This document shows, in pieces, positions 1 through 34,101 of a stretch of DNA of 34,101 nucleotides. The stretch lies in IMG/VR virus record IMGVR_UViG_3300028654_000045, positions 1 to 34,101 of that record. One strand, 5' to 3'. This stretch comes from a virus. Below the pieces are notes generated by a model. That model did not search any database, was not told where the DNA came from, and saw only the letters and a list, made by a program, of their open reading frames with translations. Made by a program: the position numbers and the translations under genes. Each line of letters begins with the position of its first letter. The stretch's first letter is position 1.

Positions 1-144
1 GGTGCTGTCTTTGGTGATGAAGGCTCAAATGCACTTGTATCAATCTTTTCCTCAGTATCAATACCAGCATTCTGACTTTCAATCTTATTTTCATTCCAGA
101 TATTATTTGTTGCTATCTTAACATGTGCCATATCATTTGCATCC
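1..144. repeat. terminal overlap, left copy (circular join)
   Basis: This stretch is repeated at 33958-34101 in the same orientation with one mismatch (G at 127, A at 34084). The portal reading frame continues without interruption when position 33957 is joined to position 1. It is best read as the overlap left when a circular or circularly permuted genome is assembled, giving a unit length of 33957 bp, and not as a biological terminal repeat. A genuine short direct terminal repeat is less likely because it would split the portal gene. Confidence 0.9.
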
Positions 145-20516: not shown

Positions 20517-21293
20517 TTACACATAGAGTGCAACTCTGAATGCTTCTTTTCTATTGTAATTGTAAATGTCTTGCAACATTCTCTTATAAAGTGAAACTTT
20601 CGCACATTGAACCATTAAGGTTGGTTGTTTGGCAATCTGCTCAATCATTCTATTATTATCATAATCAGGATTTCTGAGTAATGAAATGATTGTTTTAACG
20701 AATACACCTGAATTATATAACTTGAAGTATGGTTTGAATGCCATAACCTTTGCAGCAATTATATAACCATTGAGTTTGTCTTCCATGCTGATTTCTAATG
20801 TACCATTCTGAAATGATTTAGTCCTACCAGTCTTCTTACCATCAGCATTTTTGATTCTATCTGATTTCTCATTAGCACCATCAAAGGTATTGGTAAGCAT
20901 ATTCTCAGCACTTCCAAGATTAAATTCAGGATATTCTTTCATGAATTCCAAGAGAATCAGATAAGGTTTAATTCCTGCTTTAGCATAACTGATTGCATAG
21001 TCCATCTTACTCCAACACATTTGATGTCCATTGTAACGCTGAACATCTTTCAATCGCAGACCGGGGATGATGATGTATAAAATTTTCAATTTAAGTCTTT
21101 TACATGCCTCAATTCTGTGTTGTCCATCAATAACTTCTATAAACTCATTACAAATAATAAGAGTAAATTCATACTCTTCTGACATAGATTCCATGAGACG
21201 CTTTACATTTATCTCATTTAAGCCACGATTACCTTTAACATACTTGAAGATGTCGTAATCTACAGTTTCTAAAATTACATTAACTTTTTGCAT
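20517..21293 (-). CDS. ParB/Srx-fold nuclease-like protein
   Basis: 258 aa. The N-terminal domain has FIEVIDGQHRIEACKRLKL (about residues 49-67), the DGQHR-type motif of the ParB N-terminal/sulfiredoxin fold, which binds or hydrolyses nucleotides. The rest is helical (RYNGHQMCWSKMDYAISYAKAG, ENMLTNTFDG) and may bind DNA. There is no ParA partner, so plasmid-type partition is unlikely; a role in host takeover or replication is possible. It has its own leader with the TGTAACA-N14-TCGTATAAGTA motif and a terminator behind it. Confidence 0.65.
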   Translation of the reverse strand: MQKVNVILETVDYDIFKYVKGNRGLNEINVKRLMESMSEEYEFTLIICNEFIEVIDGQHRIEACKRLKLKILYIIIPGLRLKDVQRYNGHQMCWSKMDYAISYAKAGIKPYLILLEFMKEYPEFNLGSAENMLTNTFDGANEKSDRIKNADGKKTGRTKSFQNGTLEISMEDKLNGYIIAAKVMAFKPYFKLYNSGVFVKTIISLLRNPDYDNNRMIEQIAKQPTLMVQCAKVSLYKRMLQDIYNYNRKEAFRVALYV

Positions 21294-21333: not shown

Positions 21334-21365
21334 TACTTATACGATAATCATTGGAAAATGTTACA
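21334..21365 (-). promoter_or_regulatory. phage-specific bipartite motif, copy B
   Basis: On the minus strand TGTAACA (21365-21359), 14 bases, then TCGTATAAGTA (21344-21334). It lies 40 bases before the ATG of the ParB-like gene. Two other copies (22812-22843 and 24729-24760) have the same boxes and the same spacing. It looks like a promoter with -35 and -10 boxes, or an operator. Confidence 0.55.
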
Positions 21366-21382
21366 TTTTTTACCGATTATTT

Positions 21383-21532
21383 TTAATCAGCGTCTAAATT
21401 TTTATCTTTCCAGAATAGTCGTTTTATTTTGAGGTCATCTATTTTCTTAACTGCAGCCTCAGATTTATAGAATGGGTCGGTTAGAATTTTCATTTCTTTA
21501 TATAGTTTGGTTTTAATTGCTCGTTTTTTCAT
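21383..21532 (-). CDS. small basic protein
   Basis: 49 aa, MKKRAIKTKLYKEMKIL... ending in FWKDKNLDAD. Its ATG at 21532 overlaps the last 20 bases of the upstream gene in a different frame (a common coupled arrangement). Very basic N-terminal half with an amphipathic helix; possible nucleic-acid binding. No family is recognised. Confidence 0.5.
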   Translation of the reverse strand: MKKRAIKTKLYKEMKILTDPFYKSEAAVKKIDDLKIKRLFWKDKNLDAD

Positions 21533-21836
21533 CGCTTTGTGCTTGGCTGGACAATAAACCATTTTTTATTAATCTTTCTTTTTCCCATAGTGCTTTAATT
21601 TGTTGTTTTTCTTCTAACATAGTTGGAGTATAATCACTACCGTTATTTCTTGCATATCTCATGTGTAATCGATTATCTTGTTTTACTTCAATCAGAACTA
21701 TCAATCCAGATTTGAAGTAAATATTGGCTTCTAATTTATCATTATTTTCACCAAAGTAGTATTCTATCTTATCCGTTGGGAATAGATAAGCAATCTCTCT
21801 TACAAAATCTCTAAATAATGTCGTATTGAATGTCAT
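21513..21836 (-). CDS. unknown protein next to the initiator-like gene
   Basis: 107 aa. It starts one base after the stop of the initiator-like gene at 21838. The core EYYFGENNDKLEANIYFKSGLIVLIEVKQDNRLHMRY is an alternating beta-strand pattern with EVK, faintly like the E-x-K strand of PD-(D/E)XK nucleases, but the first Asp cannot be placed with confidence. The C-terminus is helical and polar. Confidence 0.5.
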   Translation of the reverse strand: MTFNTTLFRDFVREIAYLFPTDKIEYYFGENNDKLEANIYFKSGLIVLIEVKQDNRLHMRYARNNGSDYTPTMLEEKQQIKALWEKERLIKNGLLSSQAQSDEKTSN

Positions 21837-21837
21837 A

Positions 21838-22791
21838 TTATTTTAGTTTTAGTTTATTGATTATTTTTATTGCAGCAGTTTTATAATTTTCTTTTGAGAC
21901 TATATTTGAACTCATGTCATTTATTTTTTCATTTATTTGAATAGTATCAATTTTAATAATTGCTTCTGATAATTGGTCAGTATTCTTTATTTCAAAATTA
22001 TCTCCTAATTTTGACAGGTAGACACAAACCACATATAGACTTTCATATTTTGGAAATGTTATTCTTGGATTACTGACTTTAAATCTAAGGTAGTTGGTTA
22101 TGAGTTTATCCTGTGCGTCACCTTTCACAAAAATTGAAATCAAATTTTGAGTTTCATTTATTGGTAATTGTATGTCAGTAACACCTGCAACATCCTTATG
22201 AGTTAAACCAGTTAATTTGGATTCTGGAAATTTTTCCTCTATATTAAGTACTTCTGTTTTATCTTCTGTTTTATCTTCTCTTTTATCTTCTTTATTCTTC
22301 TTCGTGGTCACTTTAGACACTACTTTAGTATCTAAAAGGACACTACTACTATCCAAAAGGACACTACTACTATCCAAAAGAGTACTATCCTTTTGGCTAC
22401 TATCCAAAAGGACACTACTATCTAAAAGAGTACTATCCAAAAGGACACTACTATCTAAAAGAGTACTATCCAAAAGGACACTACTATCCTTTTTGCTACT
22501 ATCCAAAAGAGTAGTAGTCTTTATGGTAATAATGCGATAATCGCTACTACTCTTTTGGATAGTAATTATTTTTTTATTCTCAAGATAATCCAATGCATTT
22601 TTAATTGCTTTATATTTCATTTTTGTACCTTGTTGCATGTAGTAGTTACTAAAAGCATAGCCATTATCGTGAGATAATAGCCAAGCATATAATTTAAATG
22701 CACCAAGTGGTAATTTAAACATACCGTATTCTCTTTGTGGTAGTCGAACAAAGTTACCTTCTTGTTTCTCCTTATTTAATGTTTGTTTCAT
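21838..22791 (-). CDS. replication-initiator-like winged-helix protein with embedded iterons
   Basis: 317 aa. The N-terminal part (NFVRLPQREYGMFKLPLGAFKLYAWLLSHDNGYAF followed by MKYKAIKNALDYLENKKIITIQ) fits a winged helix of the type found in phage replisome organisers and RepA-like initiators. Residues about 85-155 are a low-complexity repeat of LLDSS/VLLDST units, coded by near-identical DNA repeats. The C-terminal third (LITNYLRFKVSNPRITFPKYESLY) is helical and may bind the helicase loader. Initiator genes that carry the origin inside them are known, for example lambda O. It has its own promoter-like motif. The exact family is not certain. Confidence 0.6.
   Translation of the reverse strand: MKQTLNKEKQEGNFVRLPQREYGMFKLPLGAFKLYAWLLSHDNGYAFSNYYMQQGTKMKYKAIKNALDYLENKKIITIQKSSSDYRIITIKTTTLLDSSKKDSSVLLDSTLLDSSVLLDSTLLDSSVLLDSSQKDSTLLDSSSVLLDSSSVLLDTKVVSKVTTKKNKEDKREDKTEDKTEVLNIEEKFPESKLTGLTHKDVAGVTDIQLPINETQNLISIFVKGDAQDKLITNYLRFKVSNPRITFPKYESLYVVCVYLSKLGDNFEIKNTDQLSEAIIKIDTIQINEKINDMSSNIVSKENYKTAAIKIINKLKLK
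22329..22564. repeat. iteron array with 21-bp inverted repeat, probable replication origin
   Basis: About eleven direct copies of a box close to TATCYAAAAG or its complement-symmetric form TATCCTTTTG lie between 22329 and 22510, 15-21 bases apart. They end in a perfect 21-bp inverted repeat: 22497-22517 and 22544-22564, with a 26-base AT-rich spacer (22518-22543), followed by an AT-rich tract with T7 (about 22565-22580). The array lies inside the initiator-like gene. Dense iterons, a palindrome and an AT-rich tract together match an origin. Confidence 0.65.
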
Positions 22792-22811
22792 ATTACTATT
22801 ACTATTAAACT

Positions 22812-22843
22812 TATTTATACGATGATTATTTAAAATTGTTACA
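22812..22843 (-). promoter_or_regulatory. phage-specific bipartite motif, copy A
   Basis: TGTAACA (22843-22837), 14 bases, TCGTATAAATA (22822-22812), 20 bases before the initiator-like ATG. The first box directly follows the stop of the nuclease-like gene. Same boxes and spacing as copies B and C. Confidence 0.55.
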
Positions 22844-23287
22844 CTATTTCCTTAATTTTTTTAAATGGTCAACAATCTTAGGAACTAATTTCTGACTTAC
22901 AAAATCACCTTTGGTATATTTCAACAACACCTGTGGGTCAAATTGCAGGAATTTTAACAGGTCTTCTTTGGTTATGTCCTTATGATTAATTTGAATCTTA
23001 CCGTTCTCTGGACTGGTATTCTCAAAACAGATTAAATGATAACCTCTATATAAGGTATCCTTTGAACACAGTTTGTTTAATCTGGCAAATAAGTAGTGTG
23101 CTGGTGCTTTTATATTATCCCAACCATACCTCTTTTCTTCAATTAGCATGAATTGACCTGTTTGGAAGTGTGTCCAAATGTAATCAACATCATAGCAATG
23201 ATAACTGAGTTGTGAATCCAACTCCTGTTGCTGGCGAATCCATATGCTGAACTCTGTGCCTCCTTCGTAAATCCTCTGTTTTGTCAT
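22844..23287 (-). CDS. PD-(D/E)XK nuclease-like early protein
   Basis: 147 aa. Residues about 31-55 (CYDVDYIWTHFQTGQFMLIEEKRYG) fit a D-x(n)-E-x-K strand pattern of the restriction-endonuclease fold: Asp in YDVDY, then the E-E-K strand. It could be a recombination nuclease, a Holliday-junction-type resolvase or an anti-host nuclease. It is the first gene of the leftward run, directly under a near-perfect host-type promoter, so it should be expressed first. Family membership needs a profile search. Confidence 0.5.
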   Translation of the reverse strand: MTKQRIYEGGTEFSIWIRQQQELDSQLSYHCYDVDYIWTHFQTGQFMLIEEKRYGWDNIKAPAHYLFARLNKLCSKDTLYRGYHLICFENTSPENGKIQINHKDITKEDLLKFLQFDPQVLLKYTKGDFVSQKLVPKIVDHLKKLRK

Positions 23288-23309
23288 TTTGTCTATTATT
23301 AATTTAGTG

Positions 23310-23340
23310 CAAATATAGTAATTAAAATTATAAATACAAG
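23310..23340 (-). promoter_or_regulatory. host-type promoter, leftward
   Basis: On the minus strand CTTG (23340-23337), 19 bases, TATATTTG (23317-23310). This fits the Bacteroidota vegetative consensus (TTG near -33, TAnnTTTG near -7). The ATG of the first leftward gene is at 23287. It faces away from an equal promoter on the other strand. Confidence 0.8.
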
Positions 23341-23377
23341 ACTTTTGAAAAAAAATTAATATTTTTTGTTATTTATA

Positions 23378-23408
23378 CTTGCAATTTAAAAATAAAGAGT
23401 TATATTTG
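23378..23408 (+). promoter_or_regulatory. host-type promoter, rightward
   Basis: CTTG (23378-23381), 19 bases, TATATTTG (23401-23408), the same boxes and spacing as the leftward one. The ATG of the ribbon-helix-helix gene follows at 23434. Between the two promoters lies an AT-rich stretch (23341-23377) with A and T runs. Confidence 0.8.
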
Positions 23409-23433
23409 TGCTGTTAATTTAAAAAACTAAAAT

Positions 23434-23688
23434 ATGGGAAGAATAAAAATTGGTGGTGAAATACTTAGACAGAGATTAACGGTCACTCTGCCACCACAAC
23501 TTATCAAAGACCTAAGAACCTATGCTGACAAGAAAATTATGTCAATATCTGCACTTGTTGAAACCTACATTAATTTAGGTATTCGTAAGGATTTCACAAA
23601 AGAAATTATTAATGAAGCATTTTCAGAAGAATTCAAAAAGGAAATAATTGATTACGAGAAATTATTAAGCGATGGGAAAAATGAGTGA
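23434..23688 (+). CDS. ribbon-helix-helix DNA-binding protein
   Basis: 84 aa. RLTVTLPPQLIKDLRTYADKKIMSISALVETYIN (residues about 13-47) fits the MetJ/Arc ribbon-helix-helix fold: a beta strand with alternating residues and two helices. The acidic C-terminal tail may bind a partner. As first gene of the rightward block, next to the divergent promoters, it is a good candidate for an autorepressor that acts on both. That role is inferred from position. Confidence 0.7.
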   Translation: MGRIKIGGEILRQRLTVTLPPQLIKDLRTYADKKIMSISALVETYINLGIRKDFTKEIINEAFSEEFKKEIIDYEKLLSDGKNE

Positions 23689-23827
23689 GGCATTCAATGA
23701 AATCCAAGAGGTCAAGTTACAACTTGAAGACTTTAGTGTTGAACAATTGAAGTCATTATTGCCATGTGCCACATGGTATCAAGAGCATGCAGTACGAGAA
23801 CTTATTAATGAAAAGCAATATGATTGA
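23672..23827 (+). CDS. small acidic unknown protein
   Basis: 51 aa from ATG 23672, or 48 aa from ATG 23681 in the same frame (MSEAFNEIQEVKLQ...). It overlaps the end of the ribbon-helix-helix gene and its stop overlaps the start of the next gene (ATGATTGA). Mostly acidic amphipathic helices (LEDFSVEQLKSLLPC). No family is recognised. The overlaps suggest translational coupling. Confidence 0.55.
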   Translation: MGKMSEAFNEIQEVKLQLEDFSVEQLKSLLPCATWYQEHAVRELINEKQYD

Positions 23828-24080
23828 AATTGATGGCGAAAACTGGTATAGTGTATCAGAGGTTAGTAAAATAATTGCGATAAAAAATTGTGGTCGTAAT
23901 AAATTTATGTTACTCCTGCGTCAAGAACATATCTTGCAGGATAATAACTTTCCAAGTCAGTACTATCTCAATATGGGATTGGCAAGAATGAAAGAAGTTG
24001 TAAGGAACGGTTATACTTTTTATACACCAGTATTTTCTACTAAAGGAATTAACTATCTTAAAAACAAATTATTATGTTAA
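23820..24080 (+). CDS. KilAC-like antirepressor-type protein
   Basis: 86 aa from ATG 23820 (MIEIDGENWYSVSEVSK). A longer frame to 23766 overlaps the previous gene and is less likely. NKFMLLLRQEHILQDNNFPSQYYLNMGLARMK and the end YTPVFSTKGINYLKNKL match the layout of the KilAC domain (phage antirepressor C-terminal domain): helix, 'L-x-x-N-N-x-P-x-Q-x-Y' loop, then TPV...KG strand and helix. In temperate phages such proteins relieve repression. Here no integrase is present, so its job may be early regulation. Confidence 0.65.
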   Translation: MIEIDGENWYSVSEVSKIIAIKNCGRNKFMLLLRQEHILQDNNFPSQYYLNMGLARMKEVVRNGYTFYTPVFSTKGINYLKNKLLC

Positions 24081-24439
24081 ATCAAAAAGAATATCAAAAG
24101 GAATATCATCGACAATATCGTCTCTTGCATCAAGAAGAGATTCGTGCATATCAGAAGAACTATAGACTTGAACATCTTGAGTATTATAAAGAAAATCAGA
24201 AGATATACCAGAGTAAATATCGGCAGGAACACCATGAGGAATATCTTATTAAACAACGAATAGCACAAAAGAAGTATAGAGCCAGACATAAAGAAAAGAT
24301 AAAAGCAATAATGCGCGATTATCAGTTAACTCACAAGGAAAGTGTTAATGCATACCAAAAAGCATGGCAAGCTGCCAATCCAGAAAAGTATAGAATTTAT
24401 AGAGATAAAATTAATTACAATAGGAGAAAAAATAAATAA
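24074..24439 (+). CDS. basic Tyr/Lys repeat protein
   Basis: 121 aa made of about eight copies of a 13-14 residue unit near Y-R-x-x-H-x-E-E-I-x-A-Y-Q-K (for example EYHRQYRLLHQEEIRAYQK). Such basic Tyr repeats are found in phage proteins, often linked to HNH or homing proteins, and are thought to bind nucleic acid. There is no nuclease domain here, so the gene may be a remnant or a free-standing DNA-binding piece. It overlaps the previous gene by seven bases. Confidence 0.55.
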   Translation: MLNQKEYQKEYHRQYRLLHQEEIRAYQKNYRLEHLEYYKENQKIYQSKYRQEHHEEYLIKQRIAQKKYRARHKEKIKAIMRDYQLTHKESVNAYQKAWQAANPEKYRIYRDKINYNRRKNK

Positions 24440-24441
24440 CT

Positions 24442-24717
24442 ATGAATACGAAAAATTTAACACAAGCAGAGTTAGACCTCATTGATGGTTTTACTTTTAA
24501 AGAACAACCAGACATGTCACAAGAAGAATATGACACTCTGTGTTTTGAAATCAGTAAGAAAATTTATGTTATTTTATTGAATAACACTGATTTAACTTAT
24601 CCACCAGAAGTTTTGGAGGCAATTCAAAATACAGCCGATAGAATTAATGCAGAAGCATTGAACGTTAAGGTCATTGACAACAATAATCAGACAGAAGATA
24701 ATATGACAATAAAATAG
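24442..24717 (+). CDS. small acidic unknown protein
   Basis: 91 aa, acidic, mostly helical (MSQEEYDTLCFEISKKIYVILL, PPEVLEAIQNTADRINAEAL). No family is recognised. It starts two bases after the stop of the repeat protein, so it belongs to the same message. Confidence 0.5.
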   Translation: MNTKNLTQAELDLIDGFTFKEQPDMSQEEYDTLCFEISKKIYVILLNNTDLTYPPEVLEAIQNTADRINAEALNVKVIDNNNQTEDNMTIK

Positions 24718-24728
24718 TTACAATAAAG

Positions 24729-24760
24729 TGTAACATTTTTCAATAGGTTTCGTATAAGTA
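24729..24760 (+). promoter_or_regulatory. phage-specific bipartite motif, copy C
   Basis: TGTAACA (24729-24735), 14 bases, TCGTATAAGTA (24750-24760), on the strand of the genes that follow, 40 bases before the ATG at 24801. Same boxes and spacing as copies A and B, which lie on the opposite strand in front of opposite-strand genes. Confidence 0.55.
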
Positions 24761-24800: not shown

Positions 24801-24881
24801 ATGAAAAGTGAAAGTTTAAAATCAGTGATTGAAAAGTATAAGGATAAAATATACTTTCGTAAACAAATCGCTAAAAATTAA
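24801..24881 (+). CDS. micro-ORF of 26 aa after motif copy C
   Basis: 26 aa (MKSESLKSVIEKYKDKIYFR...), a basic amphipathic helix, ending five bases before the next ATG. It is supported by its place between the bipartite motif and the next gene and by tight spacing; coding is likely but not proven. It could be a leader peptide. Confidence 0.4.
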   Translation: MKSESLKSVIEKYKDKIYFRKQIAKN

Positions 24882-24886
24882 AACTT

Positions 24887-25075
24887 ATGACAAAGACATT
24901 TAGTATTTCAGAATTGCAAGCATATCCATCAGATGTGCAAAAAGCAATAGTAAAGAATCACGAAGACCTCAACGGTGAAATAGATGCCATATTATACAGT
25001 CGTGATAATAAGACAGTATATTTTGGTGTTAATAATGACTGGATAGCAGTTGTGCCAAAGAGGAAAAGAGTTTAA
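24887..25075 (+). CDS. small unknown protein
   Basis: 62 aa (MTKTFSISELQAYPSDVQ...). SISELQAYPSDVQKAIVKNHEDLNGEIDAILY is a helical start followed by a strand pair (KTVYFGVNNDWIAVVPK). No family is recognised. Two hairpins follow its stop. Confidence 0.5.
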   Translation: MTKTFSISELQAYPSDVQKAIVKNHEDLNGEIDAILYSRDNKTVYFGVNNDWIAVVPKRKRV

Positions 25076-25216: not shown

Positions 25217-25528
25217 ATGGCAAGACCAAAAGGTAGTAGCAATAAGGTTAATAAGATAGCAAAGACAATAGCAAATCAATCAATTGAACCAAAAATAGAA
25301 AGAATATATTCTGAAAAATTTATAACGATAGCAACACAGGCAAAATCATTATTTCAATTCTATCCTGTTGATAAAGAAGAAGACTTCTTATTGAAACTCA
25401 AATATTTCATGACTAAATGTAACTTATTCGAAGAAACAATAACCACATATTGGCTCGGTAGATTTTATCAAGAATACACATATTACAACATTGATTATAT
25501 CCGAAAAGAAATGCAAGGTATAAAATAA
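25217..25528 (+). CDS. small unknown protein, last gene of the (+) block
   Basis: 103 aa. The start MARPKGSSNKVNKIAK is basic and of the 'ARPKG' type common at the N-termini of DNA-binding phage proteins (AT-hook-like). The rest is aromatic and helical (FLLKLKYFMTKCNLFEETITTYWLGRFYQEYTYYN). It lies alone between two hairpin groups with its own promoter candidate. It may bind DNA. No family is recognised. Confidence 0.5.
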   Translation: MARPKGSSNKVNKIAKTIANQSIEPKIERIYSEKFITIATQAKSLFQFYPVDKEEDFLLKLKYFMTKCNLFEETITTYWLGRFYQEYTYYNIDYIRKEMQGIK

Positions 25529-25605
25529 TTCCTACCATTAGGAATCCCAGCGTACTAACTCCAATTATGTACGCAACAAAAAAGCCAGCACGATTGCTGG
25601 CTTTT
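25528..25605. terminator. three hairpins between converging genes
   Basis: ATTCCTA/TAGGAAT (25528-25545, 4-base loop), GCGTAC/GTACGC (25550-25574, 13-base loop) and AAAAGCCAGCA/TGCTGGCTTTT (25580-25605, 4-base loop). The third has A and T runs on both sides and should stop transcription in both directions, separating the (+) block from the late leftward run that ends at 25660. Confidence 0.8.
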
Positions 25606-25659
25606 CCAATTTACTAAAATTGATAATGACAAATATATTCTATGACATTGTAAAGTTAA

Positions 25660-26265
25660 TTAAGCAATTTCATATTTGCAAGTATTTTTTACTATTTCTT
25701 TTTTTATTAATGAACTAAAATCTCGTACACCATTAAAGACAGGTGTGGTATTTAATCTATATGCCATGCTTATTTCTTTGTAAGTTTTATTATTGATATA
25801 TTTTTCTCTCCATAGAACGTATTTCCACCAATTTTCGCCAGTACCAAGTTGCTCGGCTACTTTATAAATATCCTCGACATTATAATTATTAGTTTGTATT
25901 TCTTCTTGTTGAATGTCACGTAAGGTTTCACAATAAATTATTTTTAATTTCTTATTTTGATAATATTTTTTATCGAAAGTCCTATGCCCATGAGTTACAT
26001 TAAATAAAATTCTGGCTATATAATACATTGCCAAGTTTGAATATTTAAAGACTTTTGATATTGTTACTGCTGATAACGCTATTAATTCTTGTAGTTTATT
26101 GGTGCGTTTCTTGTCATTAAGTGTGTAGAGATATAATTCGCTTATGATTTCATCAGGCTCTAATTGTCGGTAATTATAAACACGTGCATATTCACAGCAT
26201 TTTTGTAAAAGTATTTGGTAATTATCAGTAAAAAAACTATTAATTACCTCATTTTGGTCGTCCAT
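25660..26265 (-). CDS. sigma-factor-like transcription protein
   Basis: 201 aa. Residues about 16-95 (YQILLQKCCEYARVYNYRQLEPDEIISELYLYTL...) resemble sigma region 2, with the PDEIISELYL helix. Residues about 145-190 (NWWKYVLWREKYINNKTYKEISMAYRLNTTPVFNGVRDFSSLIKKEI) give a sigma region 4-like helix-turn-helix (TYKEISMAYRLN..). Such proteins redirect host RNA polymerase. It is the last leftward gene before the converging (+) block, with a host-type -7 element of its own (26290-26297). It is the best candidate for the factor that reads the RAA-N17-TATTTAT motif, which is inference. Confidence 0.6.
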   Translation of the reverse strand: MDDQNEVINSFFTDNYQILLQKCCEYARVYNYRQLEPDEIISELYLYTLNDKKRTNKLQELIALSAVTISKVFKYSNLAMYYIARILFNVTHGHRTFDKKYYQNKKLKIIYCETLRDIQQEEIQTNNYNVEDIYKVAEQLGTGENWWKYVLWREKYINNKTYKEISMAYRLNTTPVFNGVRDFSSLIKKEIVKNTCKYEIA

Positions 26266-32168: not shown

Positions 32169-32605
32169 TATTTCTGTCTGATATTAGTTGAATCAGTATT
32201 TATTGCTAAATTGAATTGTACATCTCCTTGCCAACCACATGTGTTATCTATCTGTCGATAAAAAGGCTGAAATTCTGATACTTGTGCTAATGTTATAAAA
32301 TACATATCATTATCACTATCATCAGTTAGATAAATAAACAATTCAGTTATTAATATAGCTAAATCACTTAAGACTTTCATGAGGTCACTTTTTTCATAAC
32401 ATAAATCAATGAAAGATATATTAGAAACGAATTGAACTACTCCATTCTGTATTCTAAACTTTAATGGTGTCATGAATATAAGTGGATATTGATGGTCAGC
32501 ACTATTAAAAGTACTGAAGTCACCACTTTGATATTCATTGACTATTGCAGATAAGTTGCAGAATGTCTGCAACTTGTTGTCTATCTCCTTGATTGTGTTT
32601 ATCAT
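32168..32605 (-). CDS. tail terminator-like protein
   Basis: 145 aa. MINTIKEIDNKLQTFCN...YPLIFMTPLKFRIQNGVVQFVSNISFIDL...DLMKVLSDLAILI fits the compact alpha/beta layout of tail completion proteins that cap the tail tube in Bacteroidota phages, with the D-x-x-x-V-L-S-D-L helix typical of the group. It follows the homing endonuclease, with which it overlaps by four bases (ATG 32605, nuclease stop at 32602). The function is inferred from pattern and order. Confidence 0.5.
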   Translation of the reverse strand: MINTIKEIDNKLQTFCNLSAIVNEYQSGDFSTFNSADHQYPLIFMTPLKFRIQNGVVQFVSNISFIDLCYEKSDLMKVLSDLAILITELFIYLTDDSDNDMYFITLAQVSEFQPFYRQIDNTCGWQGDVQFNLAINTDSTNIRQK

Positions 32606-33282
32606 GGTATATAATATGTGTTTGTTGCTCTATCTAATTTTCTACCTTTATTATTAGGCATTTTATGTTGTTTACAAGCCTCTTTGAACTCCAGTGAACG
32701 TTTACCACTCGCATTGGTGTTATTTATATTTATGCCTTTGCGTCCTTTCAATATTTTTTCTGGCTTTGGTTTACACACACCTTTATTATGAGGTGTCATA
32801 CCTTTCTGAAAATAGTTTGGCTTCTGCAATGTTTCTTCACTCATTGGTGTATGTTTGTGTCTACATGCCTGTTTATGCTCTTCTGACATTGGTATTCTGA
32901 AAGATTTATTCAATACTTCTTCACTTATTGTGTGTCCTTTGGCATTCTGATTACCTCTTAGTTTTGCTTTAAATTCTTCTGGTCTTTTTATACCTTTACA
33001 ATTACCAGCAGTCGGACTACAATTAAAATAATGCGGTATTGTATCAATATAATGTTGCTCTCTCTTTATTAATAATTCCTTCGAACATTCTTCAAGAATT
33101 GAAAATTCTAAATCTTCCTTACCATATTTATTATAATGACGTTGAAGCATTGGAGAATGGTGGTGATTTAAATTTAAATCCGATAAATGACCTCTCCACC
33201 TATAAGTTATATTAACACTACTTCCAATGTAACACCTTTCTGGCATACACGTACTCTGAATTTTATAAATACCTGTTTTCAT
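32602..33282 (-). CDS. GIY-YIG homing endonuclease with NUMOD3 repeats
   Basis: 226 aa from ATG 33282 (MKTGIYKIQSTCMPERCYIGSS). The longer open frame to 33513 overlaps the connector gene and is not coding in its upstream part. The nuclease domain shows GIY (4-6) and CYIG (17-20), the conserved Arg in RWRGHL, and Glu in KREQHYID. The C-terminal half holds NUMOD3-like DNA-binding segments (NQNAKGHTISEE, MSEEHKQACR, GRKLD). Such enzymes cut phages lacking the gene and spread by repair. It sits between connector and tail-terminator genes and has its own host-type promoter. Confidence 0.88.
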   Translation of the reverse strand: MKTGIYKIQSTCMPERCYIGSSVNITYRWRGHLSDLNLNHHHSPMLQRHYNKYGKEDLEFSILEECSKELLIKREQHYIDTIPHYFNCSPTAGNCKGIKRPEEFKAKLRGNQNAKGHTISEEVLNKSFRIPMSEEHKQACRHKHTPMSEETLQKPNYFQKGMTPHNKGVCKPKPEKILKGRKGININNTNASGKRSLEFKEACKQHKMPNNKGRKLDRATNTYYIP

Positions 33283-33297
33283 AATATATATTTTCTC

Positions 33298-33329
33298 CAA
33301 AGATAGAAATAGTTTTTCATATATCCAAA
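33298..33329 (-). promoter_or_regulatory. host-type promoter of the homing endonuclease
   Basis: TTTG (33329-33326), 20 bases, TATCTTTG (33305-33298) on the minus strand, 15 bases before the ATG at 33282. Both boxes are perfect matches to the Bacteroidota consensus. Confidence 0.75.
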
Positions 33330-33352
33330 TAAAATATGTAAGTATCTCATTA

Positions 33353-33925
33353 TCAGAGACTTTCTTCATACCTGTTTTCTGCACGTCTACGGTTATATTC
33401 ATCATCCTTACTGAAGTCTGCTTCGTCCAAGAAAAATCCTGAATTGCCGAACTTTCTTGGTACAAGTCCTTTAGCAATATAACTATATTCTGGAAAGTAC
33501 TGAAGATTTTCAATTATATAATCTTTTGTAAGTCCTGCATAGAAGTTAGCGTTACGCTCTTTATGTTTTCTGAGAGTGAGTAATTCGTCTTTTGTTTTTT
33601 GTTGAGTATGGTCAGGTGTTGTTACATTAATACCTGCCTGTGAGATTTTCAACAGCATATCGTAAAATGCAAGTACTTCAATTGTTGCATATTCATAAGG
33701 AATTAGATAATCCTCAAGTAATGTACGTTGATAATTTGTCAAAGTATTATTAGTAACACCTGTTTTAAGTGCTATATACAAACTTCTTCCAAGTAATTCT
33801 TGCGTATATGTTTCCTCACAAGTCCTAAGACTTATCTTAAGTGTTTTATCACTTACGTTCGTGTCGATTAAGCAATTATCCTTTATATTAGGAATGCTTA
33901 TAAAAAATACATTTGTTGTTGCCAT
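33353..33925 (-). CDS. head-tail connector protein
   Basis: 190 aa. TYTQELLGRSLYIALKTGVTNNTLTNYQRTLLEDYLIPYEYATIEVLAFY has the all-helical layout of the connector (gp6-like) in Bacteroidota phages, which binds below portal. The C-terminus is charged (YNRRRAENRYEESL). It follows portal after one base. The assignment depends on pattern and position. Confidence 0.6.
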   Translation of the reverse strand: MATTNVFFISIPNIKDNCLIDTNVSDKTLKISLRTCEETYTQELLGRSLYIALKTGVTNNTLTNYQRTLLEDYLIPYEYATIEVLAFYDMLLKISQAGINVTTPDHTQQKTKDELLTLRKHKERNANFYAGLTKDYIIENLQYFPEYSYIAKGLVPRKFGNSGFFLDEADFSKDDEYNRRRAENRYEESL

Positions 33926-33926
33926 A

Positions 33927-34101
33927 TTACTTTGCTGTTTGTTTTAATCCTTTAGTTGGTGCTGTCTTTGGTGATGAAGGCTCAAATGCACTTGTATCAA
34001 TCTTTTCCTCAGTATCAATACCAGCATTCTGACTTTCAATCTTATTTTCATTCCAGATATTATTTGTTGCTATCTTAACATGTACCATATCATTTGCATC
34101 C
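33927..34101 (-). CDS. phage portal protein (C-terminal end; same gene as 1-1364)
   Basis: This is the C-terminal end of the portal gene, ending in ...GLKQTAK and TAA at 33927-33929. The part from 33958 on duplicates positions 1-144. The stop is followed one base later by the ATG of the connector gene (33925), a tight junction that suggests translational coupling. The C-terminus is Thr, Lys and Ser rich, as is common in portal tails. Confidence 0.83.
   Translation of the reverse strand, partial: DANDMVHVKIATNNIWNENKIESQNAGIDTEEKIDTSAFEPSSPKTAPTKGLKQTAK
33958..34101. repeat. terminal overlap, right copy (circular join)
   Basis: This is the second copy of positions 1-144. The single difference (A at 34084 against G at 127) changes a portal codon from GCA (Ala) to GTA (Val) on the minus strand, so the overlap seems to hold two variants of a mixed phage population or one assembly error. 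Confidence 0.9.

What the first reader, a model, noticed from the sequence alone, without database searches (positions are those of the whole stretch)
21334..24760. Three copies of TGTAACA-N14-TCGTATAARTA on both strands, each oriented toward a nearby gene
Seen in sequence: copies at 22812-22843 (-), 21334-21365 (-) and 24729-24760 (+) share a 7-base box and an 11-base box (one R position) at exactly the same 14-base spacing, with CAAT-like similarity between boxes in two of them. Each precedes a start (initiator-like gene, ParB-like gene, 26-aa ORF) by 20-40 bases, in the direction of that gene. The second box contains TATAARTA. Inference: a middle-class promoter or an operator linking replication genes on both strands.
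Basis: partly seen in the sequence, partly recalled or inferred. Interest (0 to 1): 0.76.

Follow-up and report, generated by a model that had tools for sequence, protein, structure and literature searches.

The report
Sigma-type promoters shared across phages
Three matching DNA signals in this small phage are start sites for reading its replication-stage genes, of a kind used dozens of times each by unrelated giant phages that carry their own RNA-polymerase guide proteins; this suggests a common, apparently undescribed gene-switching code in phages of Bacteroidota.

Summary
In detail: three exact copies of TGTAACA-N14-TCGTATAARTA, with ATGs 40, 20 and 40 nt downstream, and no other site with up to 3 mismatches. 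A weight matrix built only from other phages ranks exactly these three first in the window (31.4-32.2 bits; next 11.0; best of 200 shuffles 16.5). They are promoters of the ECF sigma type (AAC in the -35 box, CGT in the -10 box, fixed spacing). The same element occurs up to 44 times per contig in uncultured jumbo phages, 81% within 60 nt upstream of an ATG, in front of rII, ligase and kinase genes, and with essentially no reversed-pattern controls. It is not enriched in Bacteroidota chromosomes. In jumbo phages it tracks one clade of phage ECF sigma: diverged sigmas go with TGCAAT-N16-CGTAT or N17 spacing. The window is a complete circular genome of about 34 kb. It has a divergent pair of sigma-A early promoters, these three promoters downstream on both arms, and a 201-aa protein with no family match whose C-terminal domain models as sigma region 4 (Z 10.1). 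Best reading: middle promoters read by the phage's own divergent ECF-like sigma, or else by a host ECF sigma. Which sigma reads them is unproven.

The parts
22812..22843 (-). ECF-type promoter 1 (TGTAACA-N14-TCGTATAAATA), 20 nt before the ATG of the initiator-like gene
   Evidence: (32.2 bits)
21334..21365 (-). ECF-type promoter 2 (TGTAACA-N14-TCGTATAAGTA), 40 nt before the ATG of the ParB-like gene
   Evidence: (31.4 bits)
24729..24760 (+). ECF-type promoter 3 (TGTAACA-N14-TCGTATAAGTA), 40 nt before the ATG of a 26-aa ORF
   Evidence: (31.8 bits)
21838..22791 (-). replication-initiator-like gene downstream of promoter 1; carries iteron-like repeats
   Evidence: weak PHROG matches to replication initiation / O-like families, E about 0.002; repeats
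20517..21293 (-). ParB-like / GmrSD_N-like gene downstream of promoter 2
   Evidence: phrog_12305 E 6e-29; GmrSD_N E 9e-4, below cut-off
24801..24881 (+). 26-aa ORF downstream of promoter 3, followed by 62-aa (24887-25075) and 103-aa (25217-25528) ORFs
   Evidence: sequence, ORF list
23310..23339 (-). Bacteroidota sigma-A-type early promoter TTG-N19-TATATTTG, leftward
   Evidence: consensus TAnnTTTG in PMC9723704
23379..23408 (+). Bacteroidota sigma-A-type early promoter TTG-N19-TATATTTG, rightward (RHH/KilAC arm)
25660..26265 (-). 201-aa candidate divergent ECF-like sigma factor; residues 123-197 model as sigma region 4
   Evidence: no Pfam/PHROG/NCBIfam sigma match

Best explanation
The three sites are promoters of the ECF (group IV) sigma type: -35 box TGTAACA, -10 box CGTATAA, 16 nt between TGTAAC and CGTAT. 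Early transcription would start from a divergent pair of host sigma-A promoters at 23310-23408. Then an ECF-like sigma on the host core RNA polymerase fires the three downstream promoters: two leftward (initiator, ParB-like) and one rightward, boosting replication-stage genes on both arms. Shown: the sites, their family, orientation and position. Inferred: transcription, timing and reader.
For: Independent matrix finds only these three. The AAC/CGT hallmark of ECF promoters (PMC8103513) is met; F. psychrophilum has a sigma-ECF-like motif with a CGT -10 box (PMC9723704), and S. meliloti RpoE7 promoters carry a TGTAACA -35 (PMC6180224). Dozens of directional copies per jumbo-phage contig, with one reversed control in 52 contigs. 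Type-a phage ECF sigmas occur in G005, G006, G317, G320, G350 and G376; G005, G006, G317, G320 and G350 carry N16 sites, G376 has 44 sites at N17, and G375, with two diverged type-a sigmas, uses TGCAAT-N16-CGTAT instead. G371, with type-b sigma only, lacks the class but has the late class GTATTTAT. The window's 201-aa protein: Foldseek's top full-length matches are mostly ECF sigmas; its C-terminal domain matches SigR region 4 at Z 10.1, rmsd 1.7 A over 65 of 65 residues; 7 of its top 20 phmmer hits among 5,091 ORFs are sigmas, against 0-4 for shuffles and 0-1 for other window proteins.
Against: No transcript data. The 201-aa protein matches no sigma family, its region-2 half is modelled with pLDDT under 50, profile comparison is weak (P about 0.03), and KorA-type HTH proteins also match. 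Its gene lies behind a tail gene, perhaps in a late operon. Several contigs with many copies show no type-a sigma (G322, G007, G323, G314, G307), though none of these was shown to be complete. The comparison contigs were mostly retrieved by the motif itself.
Confidence: 0.75

Rival explanations
1. The same promoters are read by an ECF sigma of the host, which this phage and the jumbo phages exploit independently; the 201-aa protein does something else.
For: The window is a complete genome without a Pfam-detectable sigma. Bacteroidota genomes carry many ECF sigmas about 30-35% identical to the phage type-a sigma. Unrelated phages share one motif.
Against: No sampled chromosome carries a regulon: 54 core matches against about 74 reversed controls in 247 Bacteroidota genomes, at most 3 per genome, and 15 against about 66 in 296. 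Jumbo phages carry their own sigmas.
Confidence: 0.35
2. The sites are ordinary primary-sigma promoters, reading GTAACA-N17-TATAAG as -35/-10 hexamers.
For: The hexamer spacing of 17 nt is canonical for sigma-70 (sequence).
Against: Bacteroidota primary sigma uses TAnnTTTG (PMC9723704), and such promoters are present separately in the window and in the jumbo phages. The most informative -10 letters are CG before TAT.
Confidence: 0.05
3. Operator sites for a phage repressor or activator that links the two arms.
For: Three sites on both strands around a regulatory region with RHH and KilAC genes.
Against: No dyad symmetry; fixed position and orientation upstream of ATGs in many phages; no such copy number expected of an operator.
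Confidence: 0.05
4. T4-type late promoters (TATAAATA).
For: The second box contains TATAARTA.
Against: An invariant -35 box at fixed spacing; downstream genes are early/middle type; the jumbo phages have a separate late-type class, AGTATTTAT, before portal, terminase and baseplate genes.
Confidence: 0.03

Closest known systems
ECF (group IV) sigma promoters, e.g. the sigma-ECF motif SM6 of Flavobacterium psychrophilum and S. meliloti RpoE7 promoters
   Same: AAC-containing -35 box, CGT-containing -10 box (SM6: CGT box; RpoE7: TGTAACA -35), a fixed spacing of about 16 nt, a short distance to the gene
   Different: Found in phages in many copies in front of replication-stage genes; -10 extended to CGTATAAnTA; no chromosomal regulon seen
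Phage middle promoters driven by a phage-encoded sigma (SPO1 gp28 type, from general knowledge)
   Same: A phage-supplied sigma redirecting host core polymerase to a phage gene class
   Different: ECF-type two-box promoter; the sigmas belong to two ECF-like clades; reader not shown in the window
T4 late promoter / gp55 system
   Same: TATAAATA-like -10; the related jumbo phages carry T4-like genes
   Different: A strict -35 box is present, and downstream genes are mostly not late
Bacteroidota sigma-A promoter (TTG...TAnnTTTG)
   Same: Present in the same window as the presumed early promoter
   Different: Different -10 (TAnnTTTG against CGTATAA)

Membership tests
[quoted passage not shown]
   sequence; hallmark stated in PMC8103513
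ECF-sigma promoter | Fixed spacing between the boxes and fixed orientation before a start codon | tested here: met
   N14 205 sites, N15 19, N12/N13/N16/N17 0; 81% within 60 nt of an ATG against 8% on the opposite strand
ECF-sigma promoter | Transcribed by an ECF sigma holoenzyme | not testable with these tools
   needs in vitro transcription or 5'-end mapping
ECF sigma factor (201-aa protein 25660-26265) | Region 4 fold | tested here: met
   residues 123-197, pLDDT about 80 in most of it, Z 10.1 to SigR region 4, rmsd 1.7 A over 65 residues; other HTH proteins such as KorA also match
ECF sigma factor (201-aa protein 25660-26265) | Region 2 (PF04542) | tested here: inconclusive
   no PF04542 match; N-terminal half modelled with pLDDT under 50
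T4 late promoter | TATAAATA with no -35 element | tested here: not met
   -35 box invariant at fixed spacing
Bacteroidota sigma-A promoter | TAnnTTTG -7 box | tested here: not met
   -10 is TCGTATAARTA in all three
Repressor operator | Dyad symmetry / symmetric half sites | tested here: not met
   the boxes are neither palindromic nor complementary to each other (sequence); strand-directional across phages

The most novel reading that the evidence does not exclude
Unrelated phages of Bacteroidota, from a 34-kb siphophage-like virus to 325-kb jumbo phages, share one interchangeable ECF-type middle-promoter code read by phage-encoded ECF-like sigmas, so that in co-infected cells one phage's sigma could switch on another phage's replication genes.
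Probability: 0.15. Interest if true: 0.82.

Novelty: new variant of a known kind. Interest (0 to 1): 0.62.

Why it matters
Transcription programmes of most Bacteroidota phages are unmapped. This gives a concrete, testable promoter code: sigma-A early, TGTAAC-N16-CGTAT probably middle, and GTATTTAT probably late in the jumbo phages. It comes with two phage sigma clades and natural specificity variants (TGCAAT -35; N17 spacing) for assigning sigma to promoter. It would let gene timing be predicted from sequence in uncultured phages, supply orthogonal promoter/sigma parts for Bacteroidota, and mark the 201-aa family as diverged phage sigmas that family searches miss.

Tried and rejected
(1) Chromosomal ECF regulon: not found; the core is at or below reversed controls in 296 and 247 Bacteroidota genomes. 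The strict core undercounts: G376 had 0 strict hits but 44 sites at N17. (3) Named crAss-like phages that carry ECF sigmas, and isolated Bacteroidota phages: motif essentially absent, 1 hit in 13 records, so an ECF sigma alone does not imply this promoter. (4) Relatives of the window through its TerL, MCP, ParB-like or 201-aa proteins: none close, so conservation of these very sites in relatives could not be tested; L220 shares a distant portal protein and carries one site. (5) Single-sequence model of the 201-aa protein: pLDDT 40, not used. (6) Several exact hits in genome contigs look incidental, e.g. upstream of alphaproteobacterial dnaK. (7) No circular end overlap in the smaller motif-rich contigs, so their lack of a sigma gene proves nothing.

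Full report
CHECK. The three 32-nt sites are exact, and there are no further sites up to 3 mismatches (whole record). Similarity is confined to the two boxes, so they are not copies of one longer segment. To avoid testing a motif on the sequence that suggested it, I built a weight matrix from 246 sites in ten other phage contigs (none from the window). It ranks exactly the three sites on top, at 32.2, 31.8 and 31.4 bits; the next is 11.0. In 200 dinucleotide shuffles the best score was at most 16.5 and the third best at most 8.0.

THE GENOME. The record is an IMG/VR virus of 34,101 bases. Its ends overlap by 144 nt at 99.3% identity and the portal gene runs across the join, so it is a circular or circularly permuted genome of about 33,957 bp. 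Most late genes are on the minus strand. TerL is distantly related (about 25-30%) to phages of Riemerella, Chryseobacterium, Cellulophaga, Croceibacter and Flavobacterium. Two divergent sigma-A-type promoters, both TTG-N19-TATATTTG, lie at 23310-23339 (-) and 23379-23408 (+), matching the TAnnTTTG box of Bacteroidota (PMC9723704). A Bacteroidota host is therefore likely but not proved. The three sites lie downstream of this pair on both arms: 22812-22843 and 21334-21365 leftward, 24729-24760 rightward.

THE FAMILY. Exact scans found the element in IMG/VR contigs and in 25 genome stretches, mostly Bacteroidota. In 52 phage contigs the core TGTAACA-N14-WCGTAT occurs up to 44 times per contig, with one reversed control in all. 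In 1.36 Mb of viral loci: 205 sites at N14, 19 at N15, none at N12, N13, N16, N17 or reversed; 81% lie within 60 nt upstream of an ATG opening at least 40 codons, against 30% at random and 8% on the opposite strand. Contigs were retrieved because they had at least one strict match, but the other copies, the spacing and the orientation were not selected. By contrast Bacteroidota chromosomes show no enrichment (control totals counted by hand from the tables), and 13 named phages, including crAss-like phages with ECF sigmas, have essentially none.

CLASS OF GENES AND SIGMAS. Genes behind 122 sites include rIIA/rIIB, DNA and RNA ligase, polynucleotide kinase, adenylosuccinate-synthetase-like, AntA and GmrSD_N genes, with a few lysis and structural genes: an early/middle profile. 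De novo upstream words in the jumbo phages G005 and G006 gave three classes: this one, sigma-A, and AGTATTTAT. The last precedes portal, terminase, baseplate and homing-endonuclease genes, so it is probably late. G005 and G006 are complete by end overlap. The phages carry two ECF-like sigma clades. Type b goes with AGTATTTAT: all the type-b contigs read in full have it, and G371, with type b only, lacks the window's class. Type a goes with the window's class in G005, G006, G317, G320, G350 and G376. Where type a differs, the promoter differs: G376 uses N17 instead of N16 (44 sites), and G375, with two diverged type-a sigmas, uses TGCAAT-N16-CGTAT and no TGTAAC at that spacing. That covariation is the best evidence that an ECF sigma reads this class. 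The assignment is not one to one: G322, G007, G323, G314 and G307 carry the class without a type-a gene in hand, but none of these was shown to be complete; G320 and G350 show some AGTATTTAT without a detected type-b gene.

No window protein matches a sigma family. The 201-aa product of 25660-26265 (-) looks like one by eye (regions 2 and 4). Tests: phmmer against 5,091 ORFs puts 7 sigmas in its top 20 (61 sigma ORFs in the set), against 0-4 for 20 shuffles and 0-1 for nine other window proteins; profile comparison is only marginal (P 0.03). A two-row alignment with a relative from a motif-bearing contig gave a model with about 80 pLDDT over most of residues 130-190. That domain matches ECF sigma region 4 at Z 10.1 (SigR; rmsd 1.7 A, 65 of 65 residues), and nearly all of the 50 best rows are sigmas; Foldseek's top full-length matches are mostly ECF sigmas, at weak E-values, with KorA repressors also listed. 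Region 2 is unresolved.

MECHANISM (inferred). Sigma-A early transcripts leave the divergent promoters, and the ECF-type sigma then fires promoters inside both early arms. Promoter 1 ends 20 nt before the initiator-like gene, which carries 25-nt iteron-like repeats, so its transcript would cross a lambda-O-like origin. Promoter 2 adds the ParB-like gene; promoter 3 a run of small genes.

KNOWN OR NEW. The two boxes meet the published hallmark of ECF promoters, AAC and CGT (PMC8103513). A TGTAACA -35 is known for S. meliloti RpoE7 (PMC6180224). A review of jumbo phages notes phage sigma factors in group 2, including Bacteroidetes phages, recruiting host polymerase (PMC7824862). I found no description of this promoter class in phages, but the library lacks most subscription papers. 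I call it a new variant of a known kind.

Noticed in passing
window 22311-22521: About ten 25-nt repeats at 15/18/21-nt spacing inside the initiator-like gene, like the iterons of a lambda-O-type origin.
   Followed up: partly
window 1-144 and 33958-34101: Contig ends overlap by 144 nt at 99.3% identity; the genome is circular or circularly permuted.
   Followed up: yes
L067-L082 and L100 (G005), L083-L099 (G006), L334-L349 (G376), L367-L384 (G317): A second strong upstream element, AGTATTTAT, precedes portal, terminase, baseplate and homing-endonuclease genes; probably the late promoter class, tracking a second ECF-like sigma clade.
   Followed up: partly
L397-L403 (G375): About 29 copies of TGCAATA-N15-CGTA, many just upstream of an ATG, in a jumbo-phage contig with two diverged type-a sigmas: a natural specificity variant.
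   Followed up: partly
L293 / L361-L366 (G371), L298 (G376) and other loci: A phage sigma clade (type b) with conserved regions 2 and 4 and a highly variable linker; one member searched had no match among 50,697 named phage records.
   Followed up: partly
window 32602-33513 (-): GIY-YIG/homing-endonuclease-like protein (by eye) overlapping the neighbouring connector-like gene; relatives lie in two other motif-bearing contigs, L005 and L014.
   Followed up: no
window 25580-25608: GC-rich hairpin (AAAAAGCCAGC...GCTGGCTTTT) between convergent operons, seen by eye; likely a bidirectional terminator.
   Followed up: no
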